DNA of 64,000 nucleotides from Micrococcaceae bacterium Sec5.7. Its GTDB lineage: Bacteria > Actinomycetota > Actinomycetes > Actinomycetales > Micrococcaceae. The stretch's first letter is position 1, and each line of letters starts with the position of its first letter. The notes under the pieces were generated by a model, which ran no database searches, was not told the DNA's origin, and was given only the letters and a program-made list of their open reading frames with translations. Position numbers and translations under genes: made by a program. The stretch lies in assembly GCA_039636785.1 (NCBI GenBank), contig CP144169.1, positions 1,302,001 to 1,366,000 of the forward strand. The letters run 5' to 3'. Below, piece by piece: positions 25,425 through 42,077 of the stretch.

Positions 25425-26066
25425 ATGATTCTCATCACCGGCTTCGAGCCGTTTGGCGGTCAAACCACCAATCCCTCATGGACGGCGGCCGTGCAGGCCA
25501 GTGCCATCCTGCAAGCCGAAGGGCTGGCCGTGGCGGCAGTCGAACTGCCCTGCATTTTCGGTGAGTCCATCAGCATGTTGCGGGAAGCACTGGATAGCCG
25601 CCGCCCGGAGCTGGTGATCTGCGTCGGTCAGGCCGGCGGCAGAGACCGGATATCCCTGGAGCGCATTGCCATCAACTGCGACGACGCGCGGATACCGGAC
25701 AATGCCGGCAACCGCCCTGTGGACCGGGAAGTGGTTGCCGGCGGACCGGCTGCCTACTTCAGCACGCTGCCGGTGAAAGCCGTTTTGCAGGCGCTGAACT
25801 CAGCCGGTATGCCCGCCGACGTTTCCCAGACCGCAGGGACTTACGTCTGCAACCACGTCTTCTATGCCCTGATGCATGAGCTGGCGTCCCGCCCCGGTGT
25901 TCGAGGCGGGTTTATCCACATTCCGTTCGAACCCGGGCAGCTGCCGCAGGGGAGCCGTACCCCCGCGCTACCTGTGGATGTTATGGCGCGGGGGCTCGCC
26001 GTCGTCGTTCGAACCGCTTTGACAACCGCAAAGGACATCACGATGGCGGCAGGCGCCACGCACTGA
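25425..26066 (+). CDS. pcp: Pyroglutamyl-peptidase I
   Basis: Pcp removes N-terminal pyroglutamate from peptides in the cytoplasm (cysteine peptidase family C15). The catalytic triad is visible: E79 in RISLERIA, C142 in AGTYVCNHVFY and H165 in GGFIHIPF. FEPFGGQTTNPSW near the N-terminus is also typical. 213 residues is the usual length. A -10 TAGGCT ends 6 nt before the ATG, so the start is probably leaderless. Confidence 0.95.
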   Translation: MILITGFEPFGGQTTNPSWTAAVQASAILQAEGLAVAAVELPCIFGESISMLREALDSRRPELVICVGQAGGRDRISLERIAINCDDARIPDNAGNRPVDREVVAGGPAAYFSTLPVKAVLQALNSAGMPADVSQTAGTYVCNHVFYALMHELASRPGVRGGFIHIPFEPGQLPQGSRTPALPVDVMARGLAVVVRTALTTAKDITMAAGATH

Positions 26067-28491: not shown

Positions 28492-31050
28492 GTGCGTATC
28501 CCACTTTCCTGGCTGCGTGAATTCGCGCAGGTCCCGGCCGATGCAACGGCCGAAGACGTCATGGCGGAGCTCGTCAAGGTCGGTTTTGAAGAAGAAGCAG
28601 TCCACCGCCCCACGGACGCCCTCAAGGGTCCGATCGTGGTGGGCCAGGTCCTGAGTCTGGTCAAAGAAGCACAGTCCAATGGCAAGACCATCAACTGGTG
28701 CCAGGTCCGGGTTGTCCCCGAAGGGCAGGAACAGACCCTCACCGGTGATGGCATCGACCCTTCCGGGGTGCAGGGCATCATCTGCGGCGCCCACAACTTC
28801 GTGGAAGGCGACAAGGTGGTGGTTACCCTGCCCGGCGCCGTGCTGCCCGGCGACTTCCGGATCTCCGCGCGCAAGACCTACGGCCACCTGTCCGCAGGCA
28901 TGATCGCCTCCGTGCGTGAACTCGGCATCGGAGAAGACCACGACGGCATCCTGGTGCTCTCGCGCATCGGCCTGGATCCGGAGATCGGCTCCGACGCCAT
29001 GGAGCTGCTGGGCCTCCACGACCAGGCCGCCGAAATCAACGTGACGCCGGACCGCGGGTACGCGTTCTCCATCCGGGGCGCCGCCCGTGAATACGCCCAC
29101 GCCACCGGAACGTCGTTCACCGACCCGGCGTCCAGGGTCAGCGCCCCGGCATCGCTGTCCGGCGGCCACGGCGTCAAGCTTAACGACGATGCCCCGATCT
29201 ACGGCAAACCCGGTTGTGATCGCTTTGTGGCCCGCACGGTCCGCGGCGTCGACCCCACCCGGCCCACACCGCCGTGGATGTCCTCGCGCCTGCGTCTTGC
29301 AGGCATTCGCTCGATCTCACTGCCAGTGGACATCTCCAACTACGTCATGATCGAGCTCGGCCAGCCGAACCATTGCTATGACCTCGACAAGCTGTCGGGC
29401 GACATCGTGGTCCGCCGGGCCGTGGCGGGAGAGAAGATCATCACCCTGGATGAGAAGGAGCGCACGCTCGACGCCGAGGACCTCCTGATCGCCGACGGCT
29501 CCGGCGCCATCGGCATCGCCGGCGTTATGGGCGGTGGCACTACCGAGGTGTCCGGCACTACCACGAACATCCTCATTGAGGCTGCGCACTTCGATGAAGT
29601 CTCGATTGCCCGGGCCCGCCGCCGCCACAGGCTGCCGTCCGAAGCGTCCAAGCGCTTTGAGCGTGGCGTGGACTGGCAGCTCGGCGGCATTGCCGCCCAG
29701 CGTGTTGTGGACCTGCTCGTCGAGCTCGCCGGCGGCACCGCTGACGAAACGGGTACCGACGTCGGGACCGCTCCCGATGCCGTCACGATAGAGCTGCCCG
29801 CCGGGTACGCCGCGGCCCGGATCGGCATCGACTTCACAGTGGAGCAGATCACCGGGTCCCTCGAGGACCTCGGTGCGGTGGTCCAGAAGAACGAGGTAGC
29901 GGGCTCGTGTGTTTCCTATACAGTCACCGCTCCAAGCTGGCGCAATGACCTGGAAACCAAGGAAGATCTCTCCGAGGAAATCGCGCGGCTGGTGGGTTAC
30001 GAAAACATCCCGGCCACACTTCCCGTCGCGCCGCCGGGCCGCGGGCTGAGCCGTACGCAGCAGCAGAAGCGCCGTCTCGTCCAGGCTCTCGCGGACGCCG
30101 GGTTGACCGAGGTCCTCGCGTACCCGTTCGTTTCCAAGGCGGCCAACAACACCTTCGGCGTGGCTGAGCAGGGAGCCGTCCGTACGGCTGTCAAGCTGGC
30201 CAACCCCATCAGCGAGGAGCACGGTTTCCTGCGCACCTCCGTGCTTCCCGGGCTGATTGAAGTGGCCAAGCGCAACCACTCACGCGGCTTCCGTGACCTG
30301 GCCCTCTACGAAGCGGGACTTGTGTTCCTGCCCGGCGAGGCGGTGGGAACTGCATCGATCCCGCCGCTGGGCGTCAAGCCTGCCGATGAGGTGCTGGATG
30401 CACTGTACGACGGCGTCCCGCACCAGCCGCTGCACATCGGTGCCTTGCTGACGGGTCATGACTCGCCGGCGACGGCCGCCCACAGCCCGCGGGCCTGGGA
30501 CTGGGCCGACGCCCTGGACATCGCGAAGCTCGCCGGCGACGTTCTTGGTGTGGAGATCGTGGTCAGCCAGGGAAGCCACCAGGCGTTCCACCCGGGCCGG
30601 GCCGCGCAGCTATCGCTGCGCTCCGGTGACGTGGTGGGCTACGCAGGCGAGCTGCACCCGAAAGTGCTGGCCGCACATGACATGCCGGCACGGTCGGTTG
30701 CTCTCGAGTTCAACGCCGATGCGCTGTTCGAAGCGGCAGCGGACGTGATCGTAGCCCGACACATTTCCACATTCCCGGTGGCTACCCAGGATGTGGCGCT
30801 GGTGGTGCCGCAGGATGTTCCGGCGGATGAAGTTCTTGCAGCCCTGCGTGAGGGGGCCGGCGAGCTGCTGGAAGACGTCGGACTCTTCGATGTGTATGCG
30901 GGCAAGGGCATCGAGGACGGCAAGAAGTCACTGGCGTTCGGACTTCGGTTCCGGGCACAGGACCGCACACTGACGGCTGACGAAGCCTCAGCTGCCCGCG
31001 AGAGCGCCGTGGCGCTGGCGTTCGAGCGTTTCGGAGCCGTCCAGCGTTAG
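28492..31050 (+). CDS. pheT: Phenylalanine--tRNA ligase beta subunit
   Basis: The 852-residue structural and editing subunit. Domains: B1 (MRIPLSWLREFAQ), EMAP-type tRNA-binding B2 with ICGAHNF (about 40-155), editing B3/B4 (about 215-400), B5 (about 420-490), catalytic-like B6-B7, and the C-terminal FDX-ACB domain starting near STFPVATQDVALVVP. Length is normal. GTG start 2 nt after pheS, so translation is coupled. A terminator follows. Confidence 0.98.
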   Translation: MRIPLSWLREFAQVPADATAEDVMAELVKVGFEEEAVHRPTDALKGPIVVGQVLSLVKEAQSNGKTINWCQVRVVPEGQEQTLTGDGIDPSGVQGIICGAHNFVEGDKVVVTLPGAVLPGDFRISARKTYGHLSAGMIASVRELGIGEDHDGILVLSRIGLDPEIGSDAMELLGLHDQAAEINVTPDRGYAFSIRGAAREYAHATGTSFTDPASRVSAPASLSGGHGVKLNDDAPIYGKPGCDRFVARTVRGVDPTRPTPPWMSSRLRLAGIRSISLPVDISNYVMIELGQPNHCYDLDKLSGDIVVRRAVAGEKIITLDEKERTLDAEDLLIADGSGAIGIAGVMGGGTTEVSGTTTNILIEAAHFDEVSIARARRRHRLPSEASKRFERGVDWQLGGIAAQRVVDLLVELAGGTADETGTDVGTAPDAVTIELPAGYAAARIGIDFTVEQITGSLEDLGAVVQKNEVAGSCVSYTVTAPSWRNDLETKEDLSEEIARLVGYENIPATLPVAPPGRGLSRTQQQKRRLVQALADAGLTEVLAYPFVSKAANNTFGVAEQGAVRTAVKLANPISEEHGFLRTSVLPGLIEVAKRNHSRGFRDLALYEAGLVFLPGEAVGTASIPPLGVKPADEVLDALYDGVPHQPLHIGALLTGHDSPATAAHSPRAWDWADALDIAKLAGDVLGVEIVVSQGSHQAFHPGRAAQLSLRSGDVVGYAGELHPKVLAAHDMPARSVALEFNADALFEAAADVIVARHISTFPVATQDVALVVPQDVPADEVLAALREGAGELLEDVGLFDVYAGKGIEDGKKSLAFGLRFRAQDRTLTADEASAARESAVALAFERFGAVQR

Positions 31051-31362: not shown

Positions 31363-31998
31363 ATGTCATCAGACGTGGTATTCCGCGCCTTCCCGCATAT
31401 CCCGGCAGACGCCCGGCTGCTGGACGGGATTGAACGCCGGCGGGCTGCGGCCATGCGGCCTGAGCCGCGGGCAGCCTTTCTATCCGGACGGGCAGCCCAG
31501 CGCCGGTTTGCGGCAGAACTGCTGGAGATCCCGACGTCGGAACTCGCCGTCCACTACAGCTGTCCCCGCTGCGGCAGCGGGCCTGGAATTGCTCACGGCA
31601 AGCCCGGATACTCCAGCAACGGCGTTCCCTCGCCGCTGTTGCTGAGCCTCTCGCGGGCACCGGGATGGACGCTGGTGGCAGCAGTCGTGTCGCCGGCGCC
31701 GGGACTACGGCTCGGCGTTGACGTTGAAGATCCGCGGCGGATGGACTTCCCCGGATTCGACGCGGTCGCCCTGACGGACTCTGAACGCCGCGACATCGCG
31801 CCTCTCGCCGGCCGGGAACTGCTGAACGAGCGGACCCGGCTGTGGGCCAGAAAGGAAGCCTGGCTGAAGATGACAGGGGAGGGCCTGACTGTGCCGCCGG
31901 CGGACCTCGACGTCCGGTACCGTCCGCAGATCACGGATCTGGAGCCGTCCGTCAGCGGGCTCCCGGACAGTCTGGTGGCCGCGGTCGCGGTCAGCTGA
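31363..31998 (+). CDS. Sfp-type 4'-phosphopantetheinyl transferase
   Basis: Transfers phosphopantetheine from CoA to a serine of carrier domains. In 211 residues: RRAAAMRPEPRAAFLSGRAAQRRFAAELL (CoA site), a CPRCGSGPGIAHGKP stretch, metal ligands in LGVDVED (D120, E122) and WARKEAWLKM (151-160) with catalytic Glu/Lys. Its partner is probably the carrier domain (S576) of the Pls-like synthetase nearby. GGGAGG lies about 10 nt before the ATG. The 3' end overlaps the convergent peptidase gene by 8 nt. Confidence 0.88.
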   Translation: MSSDVVFRAFPHIPADARLLDGIERRRAAAMRPEPRAAFLSGRAAQRRFAAELLEIPTSELAVHYSCPRCGSGPGIAHGKPGYSSNGVPSPLLLSLSRAPGWTLVAAVVSPAPGLRLGVDVEDPRRMDFPGFDAVALTDSERRDIAPLAGRELLNERTRLWARKEAWLKMTGEGLTVPPADLDVRYRPQITDLEPSVSGLPDSLVAAVAVS

Positions 31999-33358
31999 CG
32001 GGCAGCGGCGGAAGGGCTTCTTCAAACAGCCACGGATGGAGCAGGGACTCGGAATCGATCCCGGTGACCCGGTCTGCGGTCAGGATGAACTCGGCCGTCG
32101 ACACGGAGCCGTGGCGATTGCCCCGCGTCCATTCCTGAAGGAGCGCAAAGAAGACCAGATCTCCGCACCGGGTGCGGAGAGCGTGCAGTGCAAGGGCGCC
32201 GCGCTTGTACACCCGGTCATCGAACATGAGCTCAGGCCCCGGATCGCCCACCAGGAGATCCTGGATTCCCTCGCCTAGTTTCCGCCACGCTGCCCGCGCC
32301 CTGTCCGCCGCCGACATGACGCCTGCTTCTTCGGACCAGATCCATTCGGCGTAGCAGGCAAAACCTTCGTGCAGCCAGATGTCCCGCCACGAGCTGACGG
32401 TCAGCGAATTGCCGAACCACTGGTGCGAGAGTTCGTGGGCTATCAGGCGCTGGGATTCCCAGCCATGGTCCAGATGGTTGCGGCCCAGAATGGAAAGCGT
32501 CTGGGCTTCGAGGGGGATCTCGAGCTCGTCCTCGGTAACTACCACCGTGTATTCCGGGAACGGATATGGGCCGAAGCAGTTGATAAACGTACGCATCATG
32601 TCAGGCTGGCGGGCCAGTCCTTCGCGCGCGCCGTTGACCATCGCCGCCCCGACGGCGGCGAATTGGGGCACGCTGCCCGGTGCGCTGCCACGGTTGAGCG
32701 CCACGATGTCGTACCGGCCGATCTGAACCGTGGCGAGGTAGGTGGCCATCGGTTCGATCTGCTCGTACGTCCACGTTTCCCGGCTGGATTTTCTGCTGTG
32801 CACCACCAGCCGGCCATTGCAGACCGCCCTGTAGTTGCCATCTGTGGTCACCGAGATCCGGTAGCTCGATTTGTGCCGGGGATGATCGTTGCAGGGGAAC
32901 CACGAGGCCGCCCCGTTGGGCTGCCCGGCCACCAATACGCCGTCCGTGAGTTCTTCCCAGCCCACCTCGCCCCAGAGCCCCTTGCGGGGTGCCGGGTTGC
33001 CCTCATAGCGGATGTCCAGCGTAAAGTCGTCGCCGGCCTCAAGCGCCTCATCCGGCACGATCACCAGCTGCTCGGCCCGCTGGCTGAATCTGCGGATCTT
33101 CCTGCCGTTCAGCTGGACCTTGACGGCACGCAATCCGGTCAGGTCCAGCACTATCGCTGAAGACCCCCGCAAGGCAACGGCCTCCAGCACCGCACGGCCG
33201 CTGAGCCGGTTGCTGGCAAGCTTATAGTCAAGGTCCAGTTCGTAGCGGGACACCCGGAACGCATCGGTGCCCTGTCCCGGCATGTACGGGTCCGGTGCGC
33301 CGGCTGATTCGGCCACGGGCGCGGGTGCGCTGATGCCGGGTGATTCTGTGGAACTCAT
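31991..33358 (-). CDS. M1 family zinc metallopeptidase
   Basis: A 455-residue gluzincin with H308-E309-x2-H312 in AHELSHQWFGNSLT and the third ligand E331 in DIWLHEGFACYAEW, the M1 HExxH-x18-E pattern. The exopeptidase loop, GAMEN in classic enzymes, reads EDELEIPLEAQ here. It is a short form lacking the C-terminal helical domain. No signal peptide. Start ATG 33358 (MSSTESPG) has GAGG 8 nt upstream and lies 38 nt after the synthetase stop, so the two form an operon. Known Streptomyces epsilon-polylysine degraders are M1 enzymes, which suggests a trimming or self-protection role; this is inference. Confidence 0.9.
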   Translation of the reverse strand: MSSTESPGISAPAPVAESAGAPDPYMPGQGTDAFRVSRYELDLDYKLASNRLSGRAVLEAVALRGSSAIVLDLTGLRAVKVQLNGRKIRRFSQRAEQLVIVPDEALEAGDDFTLDIRYEGNPAPRKGLWGEVGWEELTDGVLVAGQPNGAASWFPCNDHPRHKSSYRISVTTDGNYRAVCNGRLVVHSRKSSRETWTYEQIEPMATYLATVQIGRYDIVALNRGSAPGSVPQFAAVGAAMVNGAREGLARQPDMMRTFINCFGPYPFPEYTVVVTEDELEIPLEAQTLSILGRNHLDHGWESQRLIAHELSHQWFGNSLTVSSWRDIWLHEGFACYAEWIWSEEAGVMSAADRARAAWRKLGEGIQDLLVGDPGPELMFDDRVYKRGALALHALRTRCGDLVFFALLQEWTRGNRHGSVSTAEFILTADRVTGIDSESLLHPWLFEEALPPLPVS

Positions 33359-33396
33359 ACAACGGGCCTCAAATATTGCGGTCTCGGGAATGGAGG

Positions 33397-36300
33397 CTAC
33401 TTGAGCCGTGGAGCGGGAACCGCCGGTCCCGTCCACGGGCTGACAGGATTGCCCATCCAGTACGTTGCGGCAGGTACGGTTTCCCCCCGCATGACCAGCG
33501 ACGCCGGTCCAACAGTACCGCCGTTGCCGATGGTGGCCCTCGGAAGGATAACGCCGTGAGGACCCATGGTGGCTCCGTCCTCGAGCGTAACAGTGTCCAG
33601 GCTCATGATCCGGTCGTGGAACAGGTGCGTCTGGATCACGCAGCCTCGGTTCACTGTGGAGCTTTCGCCGAGGGTCACAAGGTCCGCCTCGGGCAGCCAA
33701 TAGCTTTCGCACCAGGTACCGCGGCCGATCCTGGCGCCGAGGGCACGGAGCCACCACACGAGGGCAGGGGTGCCGGTGGCGGAGCGCGCGAACCAGGGGG
33801 CGCTGACCATCTCGATGAAGGTGTCCACCACTTCGTTCCGCCAGATGAAAGAGCTCCACAGCGGATGCTCGCCGGCCTTGATCCGACCCACCAGCAGCCA
33901 TTTGGCTGCCACGGCGCTTGCGGCTGCCAGGCCGCCTGCCAGCAGAACCACGAGTCCGCCCAGAACAGCAGCTGCGCCGTAGCTGAAGGCTGTGGCCAAC
34001 CAATCGTAGGCCAGCATTACGCCGGCCGCGAGAGTCACTGTAAGTACTACTGGAACAAAACGGCACAGCTCCCAAAGAGCCCTGGCAATCTTCAGCTTCC
34101 GCGGCGGCTGGAACGTCAGCGTGTTGTCCGATGCAACAGCAGTGCGGCGGAGCCTCACCGGCGGGCTGCCGAGCCACGACGTCCCCGATTTGGCTTTGGC
34201 AGGCGTGGCGGACAGCACCGCTACGAGTGAATTCTTCGGTACGTTCCTTCCGGCCGCGATCATCCCGGAGTTTCCCAGGAAAGAACGTTTGCCGATCTTG
34301 GCGGGGGCAATCTTTATCCAGCCGCCGCCGAGTTCATAGGAGGCCACCATTGTGTCGTCGGCCAGGAACGCACCCTCGCCCACGGTGGTCATCTTGGGAA
34401 CCAGCAGCACTGTGGACGCCTCAACGTTCCTGCCGATTTTGGCGCCGAGCAGCCGGAGCCACACCGGAGTAAACAGGCTCGCGTAGATGGGAAAGAGCAG
34501 ATCGCGGGCCAGATCAAGGACCCGTTCCGTGGCCCACACCTGCCAGCCGATCCGGCTCCGCACGCGGTAGTAGCCTTCCTTGAGGCCTACGCCCAGCAGA
34601 CGCGTCGTGCCCAGGATCAGCAGCAGATTGATCAGGAACCAGGCCAGCGCAGCCACAGGCATGGACACGATCAGCTGCGGGAGCGCCGCGGACAGGGATT
34701 CGTGTCCCCGGATCAAGAGGAAGACCACCAGTGCGGCGGCAGCTGCAGACACATAGGGGATCAAGGCCAGCACTGACGAGGCCGCAGCGAAGGCCACGAA
34801 CCAGAGCCGGCCCACCAGCGTACTGCTGGCGGGTGTTTCCGGCCAGTCATGTTTGGCCTTGCCGCGGCGTTCGGCAGGCGAGCCGGCAACCCATTGGCCG
34901 GCCTTGACCTTGCCGAGTACTGCCGAACCGGGTTCCACCTGTCCGCCTGCCCCGATGCTGGCACCGGGCATCAATATGCTCCGTGTGCCCACCGTGGCGC
35001 CGGCGCCCACGTGGACCGCACCGATGTGAACGAAGTCGCCATCGATCCACCAGCCGGACAGGTCAACTTCGGGCTCAATGTTGCTGCCGCTGCCCAAGGA
35101 CAGTAATCCCGTCACCGGGGGCAGCGAATGCAGATGGACGTTGCTGCCGATTTTGGCGCCGAGCGCCCTCGCGTAGTAGGGCACCCATGGAGCGCTGGCG
35201 AGACTGATCGCGCCGGATAGATCCTGGATCTGCTCGGCCAGCCAGAGACGCAGATGGATCTTGCCGGAGCGCGGATACGTCCCCGGACCCACATTCCGCA
35301 GCAGCGTGCGTGCCGCCGCGATTGAAATACCCATGCGGCCCAGGGGGCTGACAAAAACAAGCCACGAGGCGGCGACCCACCACCAGGACACTGTGGGAGC
35401 TGCCCCGAAGCCGGCCAAAAAGAACAACAGGTTATTTGCGGTCATCAGGTAGGTGAGCCAGCGCATTCCCACCAGGATGTGCAGCGGAATGCCCATGAGG
35501 GTCTGGAAGACCTGGGACTTGAGTGCCGTGGGCCGGACGGACCGTACGGGGGCCGGACCCGTGGCCACGCCATCAGGCAGGGACTGGCGCGCGGTATCAA
35601 TCAGGGCACCGATGCGTGGCGTGGCGTAGATGTCCGCGACCGTGATGGTGGCGTAGCGGACACGCAGCGCCGAGACGAGCTGTGCCGCAGCGAGCGAACC
35701 GCCGCCGTGGGCGAAGAAATCGGCGTCCAGGTTGGGCGCGTTGCTGCCCAGTACCGCGCTCCATTGCTCCACGATCCAGCGTGCATCGTCCGGCAAATTC
35801 AGCGGTGCGGAGTCGGCATCGGCGGCTCCGGAGCCTGCCAGGGGCCACGGCAGTGCATGCCGGTCCACTTTGCCGCTGGTTTTGGTGGGCAAGGCATCAA
35901 CAATGGTCAGCAGGGGAATAAGTGGTGCCGGCAGGCTTACCCCCAGCAGTTCCCGCGCGGCGGCCAGATTGATCTCAATATCTCCTGCGGGCGCCAGGTA
36001 CCCCACCAGGATCTGGTTCCCGGCCGCCGTCGTACGTACCGCTGCCGCCGCACCGGCGACGTCCGGCAGGGACTGCAGAGCGGCGTCGATTTCGCCGAGT
36101 TCGATTCTGCGTCCGCCCAGTTTAACCTGTTCGTCGGCACGGCCCATAAAAACGAGTCCGGCGGCTTCATAGCGGACCAGGTCGCCGGAACGGTAGGCAC
36201 GGTCCCAGCCAAGCGACGGCATGGGTGCATATTTTTCGGCGTCTTTCTGCGGGTCCAGGTAACGCGCCAAGCCCACACCGCCGATGATGAGCTCGCCGAG

Positions 36301-37422
36301 TTCCCCTTCTCCCACCGGTAATCCGTCGGGGCCGACCACGGCAAGATCCCAACCGTCCAGTGGAAGGCCGATCCGGACGGGTCCGGGTCCACCCAGCGGT
36401 GCTGCACAAGCCACCACCGTGGCCTCGGTGGGCCCATAGGTGTTCCAGACTTCGCGGCCGTCGACGGCAAGACGTTCGGCCAATTCAGGCGGGCACGCCT
36501 CGCCCCCGAAGATGAGGAGACGGACATTCTCAAGCGCCTCGGCAGGCCAGAGTGCGGCAAGAGTGGGCACGGTGGACACCACGGTGATGCCATGACTGAT
36601 GAGCCAAGGGCCAAGGTCCATGCCCGTCCGTACCAAGGCACGGGGAGCTGGGACCAAGCAGGCGCCATGCCGCCAGGCAAGCCACATCTCTTCACAGGAG
36701 GCATCGAATGCCACCGACAACCCTGCGAGCACGCGGTCCTGCGGTCCGATTGGCTCGTCCTGCAGGAAGATCCTGGCCTCGGCGTCCACGAACGCGGCGG
36801 ACGAACGGTGCTGTACGGCCACCCCCTTGGGGGTTCCCGTGGACCCGGACGTGAAAATCACCCAGGAATCATCGTCCGGCTGAGCCGTCCGCGGCGCAGC
36901 GAAGGGTCTGGGCCGCTTGCTGCCCGTGACAACTACCCCGTTTGCCCGCAGGATGGCAGCCACCCTGGCCTCGCCGAAAACCAGCTTGGCCCGTTCGTCG
37001 GGATCGTCCGCGTCCACCGGAACATAGGCGGCTCCGATCAGCAGAATGGCCAGGATCGCGACGTAGAGCTCATTGGTGCCCGAGGGGATGCGCACACCGA
37101 TCTTGTCGCCGGCGCCAAGGCCGGCAAGGTGGAGATCGCGGGCAGCAGCACGCACTGCGGTCATCAGTTGTGCATAGCTCAGGGACTGGCGGCCATCGTC
37201 CAGGGCAGACGCATCGGGAAAACCGGCTGCCGTGTCCTGCAGGATATCCACAAGGGTCCGCTCCGGAGGTGCGGCAACGGCCCCCGGCAGTTGGGCTGGA
37301 AACACGGTACGGACTGCGGCAACATCCGGCAGGGCGCCTAACGCAGGGTCCGGGCTACCGACCGGGTTGCCGGCAGACAGAGCAGGTGGCGCGCTGTTGG
37401 TTTGATGTTGCGGCTCAGTCAC
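33397..37422 (-). CDS. Pls/PosA-type single-module NRPS (poly-amino-acid synthetase)
   Basis: A 1,341-residue membrane NRPS. Order: adenylation domain (about 55-535) with IFTSGSTGTPKG, FDASCEEMW (D240), NTYGPTEATV, YRSGDLVR, LGGRRIELGEID and lysine K518 in PTKTSGKVDR; carrier domain (about 545-630) with S576 in FFAHGGGSLAAAQL; then six membrane helices in three pairs (about 680-740, 860-940, 1130-1190) separating three hexapeptide-repeat, acetyltransferase-like domains. No condensation or thioesterase domain. This is the layout of epsilon-poly-L-lysine synthetase (Pls). The pocket read by hand is D-A-E-S-I-G-T-V-V-K, lysine-like. Start: GTG 37422; TTG 37443 is an alternative. Product is predicted, not proven. 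Confidence 0.88.
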   Translation of the reverse strand: MTEPQHQTNSAPPALSAGNPVGSPDPALGALPDVAAVRTVFPAQLPGAVAAPPERTLVDILQDTAAGFPDASALDDGRQSLSYAQLMTAVRAAARDLHLAGLGAGDKIGVRIPSGTNELYVAILAILLIGAAYVPVDADDPDERAKLVFGEARVAAILRANGVVVTGSKRPRPFAAPRTAQPDDDSWVIFTSGSTGTPKGVAVQHRSSAAFVDAEARIFLQDEPIGPQDRVLAGLSVAFDASCEEMWLAWRHGACLVPAPRALVRTGMDLGPWLISHGITVVSTVPTLAALWPAEALENVRLLIFGGEACPPELAERLAVDGREVWNTYGPTEATVVACAAPLGGPGPVRIGLPLDGWDLAVVGPDGLPVGEGELGELIIGGVGLARYLDPQKDAEKYAPMPSLGWDRAYRSGDLVRYEAAGLVFMGRADEQVKLGGRRIELGEIDAALQSLPDVAGAAAAVRTTAAGNQILVGYLAPAGDIEINLAAARELLGVSLPAPLIPLLTIVDALPTKTSGKVDRHALPWPLAGSGAADADSAPLNLPDDARWIVEQWSAVLGSNAPNLDADFFAHGGGSLAAAQLVSALRVRYATITVADIYATPRIGALIDTARQSLPDGVATGPAPVRSVRPTALKSQVFQTLMGIPLHILVGMRWLTYLMTANNLLFFLAGFGAAPTVSWWWVAASWLVFVSPLGRMGISIAAARTLLRNVGPGTYPRSGKIHLRLWLAEQIQDLSGAISLASAPWVPYYARALGAKIGSNVHLHSLPPVTGLLSLGSGSNIEPEVDLSGWWIDGDFVHIGAVHVGAGATVGTRSILMPGASIGAGGQVEPGSAVLGKVKAGQWVAGSPAERRGKAKHDWPETPASSTLVGRLWFVAFAAASSVLALIPYVSAAAAALVVFLLIRGHESLSAALPQLIVSMPVAALAWFLINLLLILGTTRLLGVGLKEGYYRVRSRIGWQVWATERVLDLARDLLFPIYASLFTPVWLRLLGAKIGRNVEASTVLLVPKMTTVGEGAFLADDTMVASYELGGGWIKIAPAKIGKRSFLGNSGMIAAGRNVPKNSLVAVLSATPAKAKSGTSWLGSPPVRLRRTAVASDNTLTFQPPRKLKIARALWELCRFVPVVLTVTLAAGVMLAYDWLATAFSYGAAAVLGGLVVLLAGGLAAASAVAAKWLLVGRIKAGEHPLWSSFIWRNEVVDTFIEMVSAPWFARSATGTPALVWWLRALGARIGRGTWCESYWLPEADLVTLGESSTVNRGCVIQTHLFHDRIMSLDTVTLEDGATMGPHGVILPRATIGNGGTVGPASLVMRGETVPAATYWMGNPVSPWTGPAVPAPRLK

Positions 37423-37504: not shown

Positions 37505-38470
37505 TTAAGGAACCAGCAGTACTTTTCCGGTGGTGAGCCGTTGTTCCAAGTCCCTGTGAGCCTGCGCGGCCTCCCCCAGCGGATAGCTGGCTCCGATCCG
37601 GACTTTCAGGCTCCCGTCAGCTGCCGCACCGAAGATTTCAGCGGACCGCCAGCGGCGTTCCTGCGCGTTGAGCAGGAAGTGGCGCATTGTCGGCCTGGTG
37701 ATGCTCAGCGACCCGCCTGAGTTAAGCCGCTGCGGATCGAACGGCGGGACGGGTCCGGATGCTGCTCCGAAAAGGACCAGTGTCCCGCGGGTGCGGAGGC
37801 TGGAAAGCGAGCCGTCGAAGGTGTCTTTCCCCACGCCGTCGTACACCACGTCCACACCGGTGCCGCGGGTGAGCTCCCGGACCGATTGCGCGAATCCTTC
37901 GTACCGCAGCACGTCGTCGGCTCCGGCCTCCCGGGCCAGTGCTTCCTTCTCATCCGAGGAGACCGTGGTGATGACGCGGGCGCCGCGGGACTTGAGCAGC
38001 TGGATCAGCAGGAGTCCAACGCCGCCGGCACCTGCGTGCGTCAGCACGGTGTGTCCGGGTTCCACCCGGAAGGAGGAATTGATGAGGTAGTGGGCCGTTA
38101 TTCCCTGCAACGGGATGGCCGCGGCGGTGAAGTCGTCGACGCCGTCAGGTACGGGCAGCGCCTTCTCGGCGTCCAGCAGCGCATATCCCGCGTAGCAGCG
38201 GGACCCCTCAGCGGTGGCGACGCGGCTGCCCACGGAAATCCCGTCGACGCCGTTGCCCAGTTCCTCAACGGTGCCGGCTGCTTCGGAGCCGGGCGTGAAC
38301 GGGAACGGAACGTTGTATATGCCGCTGCGCTGATAGGTATCAATGAAGTTGACGCCGGCGGCGGCCACCTTGACCAGCAGCTGGCCGGGGCCGGGGACCG
38401 GACGGTCAACCTCGGCAATCTCCAGGACTTCGGGGCCGCCCTGTTGCCGGGCGACGATTGCGTGCATCAT
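37505..38470 (-). CDS. NADPH:quinone oxidoreductase, zeta-crystallin type
   Basis: A 321-residue medium-chain dehydrogenase without zinc ligands. GroES-like part with GVNFIDTYQRSGIY (family mark) and GSEAAG; Rossmann part with THAGAGGVGLLLIQLLKSRGA and the SSDEK loop for NADPH. It reduces quinones to semiquinones or related enals. ATG 38470 (MMHAIV) has GGAGGAGG about 9 nt upstream. A palindrome ACCATCC-TAT-GGATGGT at 38517-38533 overlaps the likely -10 TAGGAT, a possible repressor site. Confidence 0.9.
   Translation of the reverse strand: MMHAIVARQQGGPEVLEIAEVDRPVPGPGQLLVKVAAAGVNFIDTYQRSGIYNVPFPFTPGSEAAGTVEELGNGVDGISVGSRVATAEGSRCYAGYALLDAEKALPVPDGVDDFTAAAIPLQGITAHYLINSSFRVEPGHTVLTHAGAGGVGLLLIQLLKSRGARVITTVSSDEKEALAREAGADDVLRYEGFAQSVRELTRGTGVDVVYDGVGKDTFDGSLSSLRTRGTLVLFGAASGPVPPFDPQRLNSGGSLSITRPTMRHFLLNAQERRWRSAEIFGAAADGSLKVRIGASYPLGEAAQAHRDLEQRLTTGKVLLVP

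Positions 38471-39696: not shown

Positions 39697-42077
<2,381 letters not shown>

What the first reader, a model, noticed from the sequence alone, without database searches (positions are those of the whole stretch)
31363..37422. Compact poly-amino-acid locus: Pls-like synthetase, M1 peptidase and PPTase
The synthetase has the architecture of epsilon-poly-L-lysine synthetase: adenylation and carrier domains, six membrane helices in three pairs, three acetyltransferase-like domains, no condensation or thioesterase domain. Its operon partner is an M1 metallopeptidase, the family of known epsilon-polylysine-degrading enzymes in Streptomyces. A Sfp-type transferase that could prime the carrier is convergent and overlaps by 8 nt. 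Together they could make, activate and trim a cationic polymer. The assignment of product and the role of the peptidase are inference.
Basis: partly seen in the sequence, partly recalled or inferred. Interest (0 to 1): 0.7.

Follow-up and report, generated by a model that had tools for sequence, protein, structure and literature searches.

The report
Polylysine-type polymer gene locus in Arthrobacter
This is an Arthrobacter version of a known bacterial gene set for making the antimicrobial polymer epsilon-polylysine, with a peptidase that probably breaks the polymer down and, more unusually, its own switch-on enzyme for the synthetase next door.

Summary
Window 33397-37422 (-) encodes a full Pls/PosA-type synthetase: adenylation, carrier and a three-repeat membrane/acetyltransferase-like region, no condensation or thioesterase domain. 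The adenylation domain is closest to Streptomyces epsilon-polylysine synthase; its pocket code (DAESIGTVVK) equals that of an annotated Streptomyces Pls and of 80 of 80 close relatives. An M1 peptidase lies 38 nt downstream; a Sfp-type PPTase is convergent and overlaps it by 8 nt.

The synthetase-peptidase pair (pls-pldII) and Pls homologues in Arthrobacter are in print, so this is a new member of a known kind. M1 lies downstream of the synthetase in 80 of 80 loci. The PPTase link is lineage-limited: adjacent in 24 of 36 Micrococcaceae and 6 of 7 Microbacteriaceae loci, 0 of 37 others. This genome shows only two carriers and two PPTases, implying a dedicated pair. The set sits between pheT and argC; relatives show empty sites and relics there. 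The M1 lacks the hydrophobic N-terminus of a Streptomyces homologue, so it probably acts inside the cell. Product and activities are inferred, not shown.

The parts
33397..37422 (-). Pls/PosA-type synthetase (A-T-[membrane/acetyltransferase-like]x3), 1341 aa
   Evidence: TIGR02353 704 bits vs cut-off 423; PF00501, PF00550
35836..37275 (-). Adenylation domain, residues about 50-529; pocket code DAESIGTVVK (lysine type)
   Evidence: Best PDB match 7wew, epsilon-poly-L-lysine synthase, 642 bits; pocket comparison (code positions recalled from PheA)
35596..35781 (-). Carrier (T) domain, residues 548-609, attachment serine about residue 576 (GGGSL)
   Evidence: PF00550 36.9 bits; motif scan
33442..35511 (-). 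Polymerising region, residues 638-1327: three repeats of membrane helices plus beta-helix
   Evidence: TIGR02353 1-695/695; AlphaFold model; Foldseek hits to hexapeptide acetyltransferases
31991..33358 (-). M1 metallopeptidase, PldII-like, 455 aa, no hydrophobic N-terminus
   Evidence: PF01433 and PF17900; zinc motif; downstream of Pls in 80 of 80 loci; N-terminus
33359..33396 (-). 38-nt gap between synthetase stop and M1 start (same strand, probable operon)
   Evidence: coordinates
31363..31998 (+). Sfp-type 4'-phosphopantetheinyl transferase, 211 aa, convergent; no other PPTase but an AcpS-sized one was found in the genome
   Evidence: PF01648 41.7 bits; own-genome search
31991..31998 (.). 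8-nt convergent overlap of the PPTase and M1 gene ends
   Evidence: coordinates
28492..31050 (+). pheT (phenylalanyl-tRNA synthetase beta): left border of the slot
   Evidence: linkage to M1 in 65 of 75 genomes
37505..38470 (-). Zinc-type dehydrogenase on the right border; present beside argC in most Pls-negative slots examined
39871..40914 (+). argC, right-hand landmark (argJ follows)

Best explanation
A chromosomal epsilon-poly-L-lysine (or very similar lysine isopeptide) locus of the published pls-pldII kind, carrying its own carrier-activating enzyme. Proposed working: the PPTase converts the apo carrier of the synthetase to the holo form; the adenylation domain activates L-lysine and loads it on the carrier; the three-repeat membrane region joins lysines through side-chain amines and passes the chain outward; the M1 peptidase hydrolyses polymer that is in, or returns to, the cytoplasm, protecting the producer and recycling lysine. 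Shown here: gene content, domains, pocket residues, conservation, chromosomal slot, carrier and PPTase counts. Inferred: substrate, product, export, PPTase specificity and the role and place of M1.
For: TIGR02353 full length far over cut-off. Best solved match of the adenylation domain is epsilon-PL synthase 7wew. Pocket code DAESIGTVVK identical in the window, in Streptomyces sp. NBC_01454 'epsilon-poly-L-lysine synthase Pls', in a Kitasatospora and a Rhodococcus opacus copy, and in 80 of 80 named loci; PMC10522769 section 9 says lysine-activating members have alanine where PosA has Met218, as here. M1 on the same strand downstream of Pls in 80 of 80 loci, with 271-2071 nt between the frames in 5 of them; annotated Streptomyces pls and M1 overlap by 4 bp, as reported for S. 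albulus pls-pldII (PMC4361855 passage). Own genome: one TIGR02353 protein over cut-off, two carriers (an ACP-sized frame and this synthetase), two PF01648 proteins (this and an AcpS-sized frame). In 149 family genomes, 72 of 82 with a TIGR02353 match have two or more PF01648 hits against 21 of 67 without; counted by close M1 relative, 65 of 75 against 28 of 74. Of the 7 of 36 Micrococcaceae loci with no PPTase in view, 7 of 7 genomes hold one.
Against: No product, transcript or enzyme activity is known for this strain. C. variabile Pls gave no epsilon-PL in its own host or in C. glutamicum, only in S. coelicolor under a Streptomyces promoter (PMC8117764), so such loci can be silent. The PPTase is not within the fetched stretch in 37 of 37 loci outside two families. 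21 of 67 genomes without a TIGR02353 match also have two or more PF01648 hits, 6 of them with a single carrier hit. The counts are not corrected for relatedness.
Confidence: 0.82

Rival explanations
1. Same type of enzyme but a different cationic polymer (for example poly-ornithine or poly-diaminobutyrate) or a mixed short isopeptide.
For: The family makes several such polymers (PMC8117764 part 1; PMC10522769 passages). Arginine-pathway genes that pass through ornithine lie nearby, but the same order exists in relatives without Pls.
Against: Pocket identical at all ten positions to an annotated Pls and, compared by eye in the printed alignment, to 7wew; the PosA code has Met where this has Ala and Ser where this has Val.
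Confidence: 0.1
2. The PPTase is a general Sfp-type enzyme that only happens to lie here and serves other carriers.
For: Not linked in 37 of 37 loci outside Micrococcaceae and Microbacteriaceae. One slot without Pls (L099) keeps the PPTase, in a genome with seven carrier hits and a split Pls-like pair.
Against: In this genome no other non-ACP carrier was found. PPTase number tracks Pls in 149 genomes, with the caveat on relatedness.
Confidence: 0.2
3. The M1 enzyme is a general aminopeptidase, or an outside trimming enzyme that sets chain length, rather than an intracellular protective hydrolase.
For: CRISPRi of S. albulus pldII changed chain length, and PldII is described there as outside the membrane (PMC9223678 passages).
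Against: Inactivation of Pld and PldII reportedly left production and length unchanged (Yamanaka 2010 as cited in PMC8506220 passages). No hydrophobic N-terminus in this M1. Constant linkage to Pls argues against a general role.
Confidence: 0.3
4. The locus is a decaying remnant.
For: Fragments and losses exist in relatives: L087, L081; G144 has stops in the synthetase match.
Against: All three window frames are intact and the synthetase is up to 87% identical over most of its length to named Arthrobacter relatives.
Confidence: 0.03

Closest known systems
Streptomyces albulus pls-pldII operon (epsilon-poly-L-lysine)
   Same: Domain order, pocket residues, M1-type peptidase downstream on the same strand (the M1 label is from the NBC_01454 annotation)
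   Different: The Streptomyces pair overlaps by 4 bp, here there is a 38-nt gap; the NBC_01454 M1 starts with an Arg-Arg/hydrophobic stretch, this one does not; a PPTase is adjacent here
Corynebacterium variabile Pls and its peptidase operon (PMC8117764)
   Same: Coryneform Pls plus peptidase; the paper lists Pls homologues in Arthrobacter
   Different: The word phosphopantetheinyl does not occur in that paper (0 occurrences); different genus
PosA, delta-poly-L-ornithine synthetase of Acinetobacter baumannii
   Same: Same family; three-repeat beta-helix and membrane-helix model (PMC10522769 passages)
   Different: PosA is a single-gene operon (passage) with an ornithine pocket (section 9); A. 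baumannii matches are about 31.5% identical over 75% of the query
PDAP synthetase of S. albulus PD-1 (PMC4668381)
   Same: Single-module synthetase with three tandem C-terminal domains (abstract and passages)
   Different: Phe at the key pocket position (PMC10522769 section 9); monomer made by cysteine-synthase- and ornithine-cyclodeaminase-like proteins, and no such gene among the window neighbours scanned

Membership tests
Pls/PosA family NRPS (TIGR02353) | Full-length match to the terminal-domain model over the curated cut-off | tested here: met
   704 bits vs 423, positions 1-695 of 695
Pls/PosA family NRPS (TIGR02353) | Adenylation and carrier domains, no condensation or thioesterase domain | tested here: met
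   Only PF00501 and PF00550 at E <= 0.001
Pls/PosA family NRPS (TIGR02353) | Three helix-pair plus acetyltransferase-like repeats | tested here: met
   AlphaFold model, mean pLDDT 77, three repeats; acetyltransferase hits; helix pair 1 weak by hydropathy
epsilon-poly-L-lysine synthetase (Pls) | Lysine-type adenylation pocket | tested here: met
   DAESIGTVVK identical to an annotated Pls; code positions recalled
epsilon-poly-L-lysine synthetase (Pls) | Makes epsilon-poly-L-lysine | not testable with these tools
   needs biochemistry
PldII-type epsilon-PL degrading enzyme | M1 metallopeptidase next to pls on the same strand | tested here: met
   44.6% identical over 451 aligned residues to the M1 beside Streptomyces NBC_01454 pls
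PldII-type epsilon-PL degrading enzyme | Located outside the membrane (reported for S. albulus) | tested here: not met
   No hydrophobic N-terminus (best 15-residue mean 0.47). A prediction only; hence 'PldII-like', not PldII
PldII-type epsilon-PL degrading enzyme | Cleaves epsilon-PL | not testable with these tools
   needs an assay
Sfp-type PPTase | PF01648 match with G-x-D and W-x-x-K-E-A...K motifs in a protein of about 200 aa or more (motifs recalled) | tested here: met
Sfp-type PPTase | Activates the Pls carrier | not testable with these tools
   only indirect:

The most novel reading that the evidence does not exclude
In Micrococcaceae and some Microbacteriaceae the polylysine locus is a self-contained module: synthetase, an intracellular polymer-degrading M1 enzyme, and a PPTase dedicated to what is often the only non-ACP carrier in the cell. 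The module is gained, lost or eroded at one slot between pheT and argC, and when the local PPTase is lost a copy is kept elsewhere. Lineages whose core metabolism already needs a Sfp-type PPTase (recalled for mycolate makers) do not carry it beside pls.
Probability: 0.5. Interest if true: 0.4.

Novelty: new member of a known kind. Interest (0 to 1): 0.3.

Why it matters
It shows how a common soil genus probably makes a commercial antimicrobial polymer, supplies a likely cognate PPTase for expressing such synthetases in other hosts, and makes the unsettled role of the M1 partner testable because here it appears to be cytoplasmic.

Tried and rejected
Considered and set aside. (1) M1 as part of a general peptidase neighbourhood: the direct neighbours of the locus are pheST on one side and a dehydrogenase, a desaturase and argCJ on the other (a pyroglutamyl peptidase gene lies further off at 25425-26066). 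(2) Poly-ornithine through the nearby arginine genes: the pocket is of lysine type, and the order pheT-dehydrogenase-argC exists without Pls (L088, L089, L091, L092). (3) Chance linkage of M1: 80 of 80. (4) A plasmid-borne locus: 36 plasmid records hold a relative at E <= 1e-50, one of them Arthrobacter (a 1.35-Mb record), but in the family survey 65 of 75 M1-positive genomes have M1 within 8 kb of pheT.

Results against a simple trio. 0 of 37 loci outside the two families have the PPTase in view. 12 of 36 Micrococcaceae loci do not have it adjacent: 5 have a PPTase-like frame elsewhere in the locus (L003, L015, L026, L027, L032; the last three weak, 29-41 bits) and 7 have none in view. Of those 7, L001 ends at a contig edge and its genome has the PPTase beside pheT on another contig; L030 has it beside pheT just past the fetched edge; L018 has it beside pheT on another contig, not within 4.5 kb of its M1; L010, L016, L021 and L034 have one elsewhere. 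Of the 6 Microbacteriaceae positives, three are weak (L060, L067, L072; 20-28 bits). Of 10 TIGR02353-positive genomes with a single PF01648 hit, six were fetched: 5 of 6 show a PPTase-like frame in the slot that the Pfam search missed (two of them only about 30 bits) and 1 does not (L097); G040, G092 and G108 were not fetched, and in G148 the single hit is itself the one beside pheT. The 82 TIGR02353-positive genomes include 7 without a close M1 relative, some of which hold only split Pls-like genes. Eight of the M1 rows have one stop inside the match (G106, G063, G114, G097, G005, G089, G107, G013); whether these are true breaks or shorter ends was not examined. In one search the start of the conserved M1 core was not located by motif in 28 of 80 rows, so the no-signal statement covers 52 rows (5 of them too short to score) plus the window; the highest score among the 52 was 0.88.

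Limits. One search kept the best 80 of at least 594 relatives, so counts of named loci describe close relatives only, with about 6 kb of flank. The family survey is a sample of 149 genomes, drawn evenly; lists of places were cut. The Fisher test ignores shared ancestry. PMC11078813 and PMC12025171 (passages) speak of polylysine only in general or in a reference; PMC12067966 (passages) reports conserved epsilon-PL clusters in Agrococcus and Microbacterium, and the search there for 'phosphopantetheinyl' gave 0 occurrences. One literature search on split synthetases gave nothing used here beyond PMC4668381.
Full report
What is there. On the minus strand, 33397-37422 encodes a 1341-aa synthetase and 31991-33358 a 455-aa M1 metallopeptidase, 38 nt apart; on the plus strand 31363-31998 encodes a 211-aa PPTase whose end overlaps that of the peptidase by 8 nt. 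The synthetase matches NCBIfam TIGR02353 (Pls/PosA family) over its full length at 704 bits (cut-off 423), with one adenylation and one carrier domain and no condensation or thioesterase hit. A model of the last 724 residues from a 28-row alignment (mean pLDDT 77, pTM 0.84) shows three repeats of helices plus strands. Of 11 PDB matches with E <= 0.001, 8 are acetyltransferases and 3 are designed proteins, with target-normalised TM-scores of 0.27-0.57. This agrees with the published model of PosA, three left-handed beta-helices on a helical bundle (PMC10522769, passages). A plain hydropathy scan sees membrane-helix pairs 2 and 3 well and pair 1 weakly.

Substrate. The nearest solved protein is the adenylation domain of epsilon-poly-L-lysine synthase, 7wew (642 bits). 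At the ten pocket positions (placed by motif; the positions are recalled from PheA) the window reads DAESIGTVVK, the same as a Streptomyces protein annotated as epsilon-poly-L-lysine synthase Pls, a Kitasatospora and a Rhodococcus opacus relative, and 80 of 80 named loci. PMC10522769 section 9 (read) gives the PosA code as DMEHNGTVSK and says lysine-activating members have alanine in place of that methionine. The window synthetase is 51.5% identical to the Streptomyces Pls over 1296 aligned residues.

The peptidase. An M1 gene lies downstream of the synthetase on the same strand in 80 of 80 named loci; in 5 of these there are 271-2071 nt between the open frames. In Streptomyces sp. NBC_01454 the annotated pls and M1 genes overlap by 4 bp, as reported for S. 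albulus pls-pldII (PMC4361855, passage). PMC8117764 (parts 1 and 2 of 4 read) describes the pls-peptidase operon in Streptomyces and Corynebacterium variabile, shows epsilon-PL from the C. variabile gene in S. coelicolor, and lists Pls homologues in Arthrobacter. One exception outside the 80: a Rhodococcus opacus plasmid has a Pls gene with no M1 among the 12 annotated features shown. The window M1 is 44.6% identical to the Streptomyces one, which starts with an Arg-Arg and hydrophobic stretch; the window M1 does not. S. albulus PldII is reported outside the membrane (PMC9223678, passages). An intracellular role in this group is therefore my inference. Published results on chain length disagree: CRISPRi changed it, inactivation reportedly did not (Yamanaka 2010 as cited in PMC8506220, passages).

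The PPTase. In the own genome, searches at E <= 0.001 found two carriers (an ACP-sized frame of 87 aa and this synthetase), two PF01648 proteins (this one and a 118-aa AcpS-sized frame) and one TIGR02353 protein over the cut-off. So this PPTase has one obvious client. Among named loci, a convergent PPTase beside M1 occurs in 24 of 36 Micrococcaceae, 6 of 7 Microbacteriaceae (three of the six weak, 20-28 bits) and 0 of 37 others; 29 of 36 Micrococcaceae have one somewhere in the locus (the family of four genera was checked, the rest recalled). In the other 7 Micrococcaceae the genome holds a Sfp-type PPTase in 7 of 7, though for L001 and L030 the gap is an edge effect. In L010 the slot holds a fragment of PPTase while a full-length relative lies elsewhere; in L034 the M1 and pheT frames are 79 nt apart. 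In 149 family genomes, 72 of 82 with a TIGR02353 match have two or more PF01648 hits against 21 of 67 without (Fisher p 7e-13, not corrected for relatedness); by close M1 relative, 65 of 75 against 28 of 74. Among 34 genomes with a TIGR02353 match and exactly two carrier hits, 27 have two or more PF01648 hits. Two searches that paired polylysine with phosphopantetheinyl transferase (4 papers listed, 10 of 16 listed) showed no title or abstract opening that describes this link; only PMC4361855 was looked into for it, and its single mention concerns other genes. So I did not find the link in print, within these searches of open papers.

The slot. The window's neighbours are pheS-pheT on one side and a dehydrogenase, a desaturase and argC-argJ on the other. 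In 65 of 75 genomes with a close M1 relative, M1 lies within 8 kb of pheT. Of 13 Pls-negative slots fetched, 4 (L082, L088, L091, L092) have the pheT and dehydrogenase frames less than 250 nt apart, two (L087, L081) hold Pls fragments, one (L086) has only a weak PPTase-like frame (18 bits), and the other six hold other or unassigned sequence; a further slot without Pls (L099) keeps the PPTase. All 8 genomes sampled from the window's own genus have a TIGR02353 match.

Verdict. A new member of the pls-pldII kind with a probably dedicated PPTase. It is well supported as to gene function by homology, unproven as to product, and of moderate interest mainly for the PPTase link and the apparently cytoplasmic M1.

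Noticed in passing
L102:3392-9000 (+); two such frames also in L105, L106, L107, L108, L109, L110, L115, L119: Split Pls-like pairs in family genomes. In L102 one protein has three tandem carrier domains and hexapeptide repeats but no adenylation domain, and an overlapping next frame carries adenylation and carrier domains; a PLP-dependent (cysteine-synthase-like) enzyme lies upstream, which would fit a diaminopropionate polymer. L101 has the three-carrier protein alone. Domains were scanned only in L101 and L102; the own genome has a single TIGR02353 protein over cut-off.
   Followed up: partly
L113:3165-7466 (-), L114:2993-7255 (-): Pls-type synthetases (L113 27% identical to the window protein) with pocket DFECLSVVTK; Phe at the key position is reported for PDAP synthetase.
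   Followed up: no
L111, L112, L116, L117, L118, L120: A second Pls-like type in the family (45-50% identical in the three measured) with pocket DAESIGTVIK; neighbours were not examined.
   Followed up: no
window 31363-31998; 28 PPTases aligned: The motif that reads S-x-S-H in Sfp (recalled) is S-x-S-R here; Arg in 26 of the 28 rows, the window included.
   Followed up: no
L087:13499-14455, L081:4751-5119, L099:15192-15962: Pls fragments in two Pls-negative genomes at the pheT-argC slot, and a PPTase kept there without Pls in a third genome.
   Followed up: partly
G144:C1:641982-645507: Synthetase match with two stops and M1 match in two pieces: an apparently decaying copy.
   Followed up: no
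plasmid records, e.g. NZ_CP095404.2: Pls relatives on large plasmid records of Rhodococcus, Mycobacterium, Streptomyces and others; the R. opacus copy shown has no M1 neighbour.
   Followed up: partly
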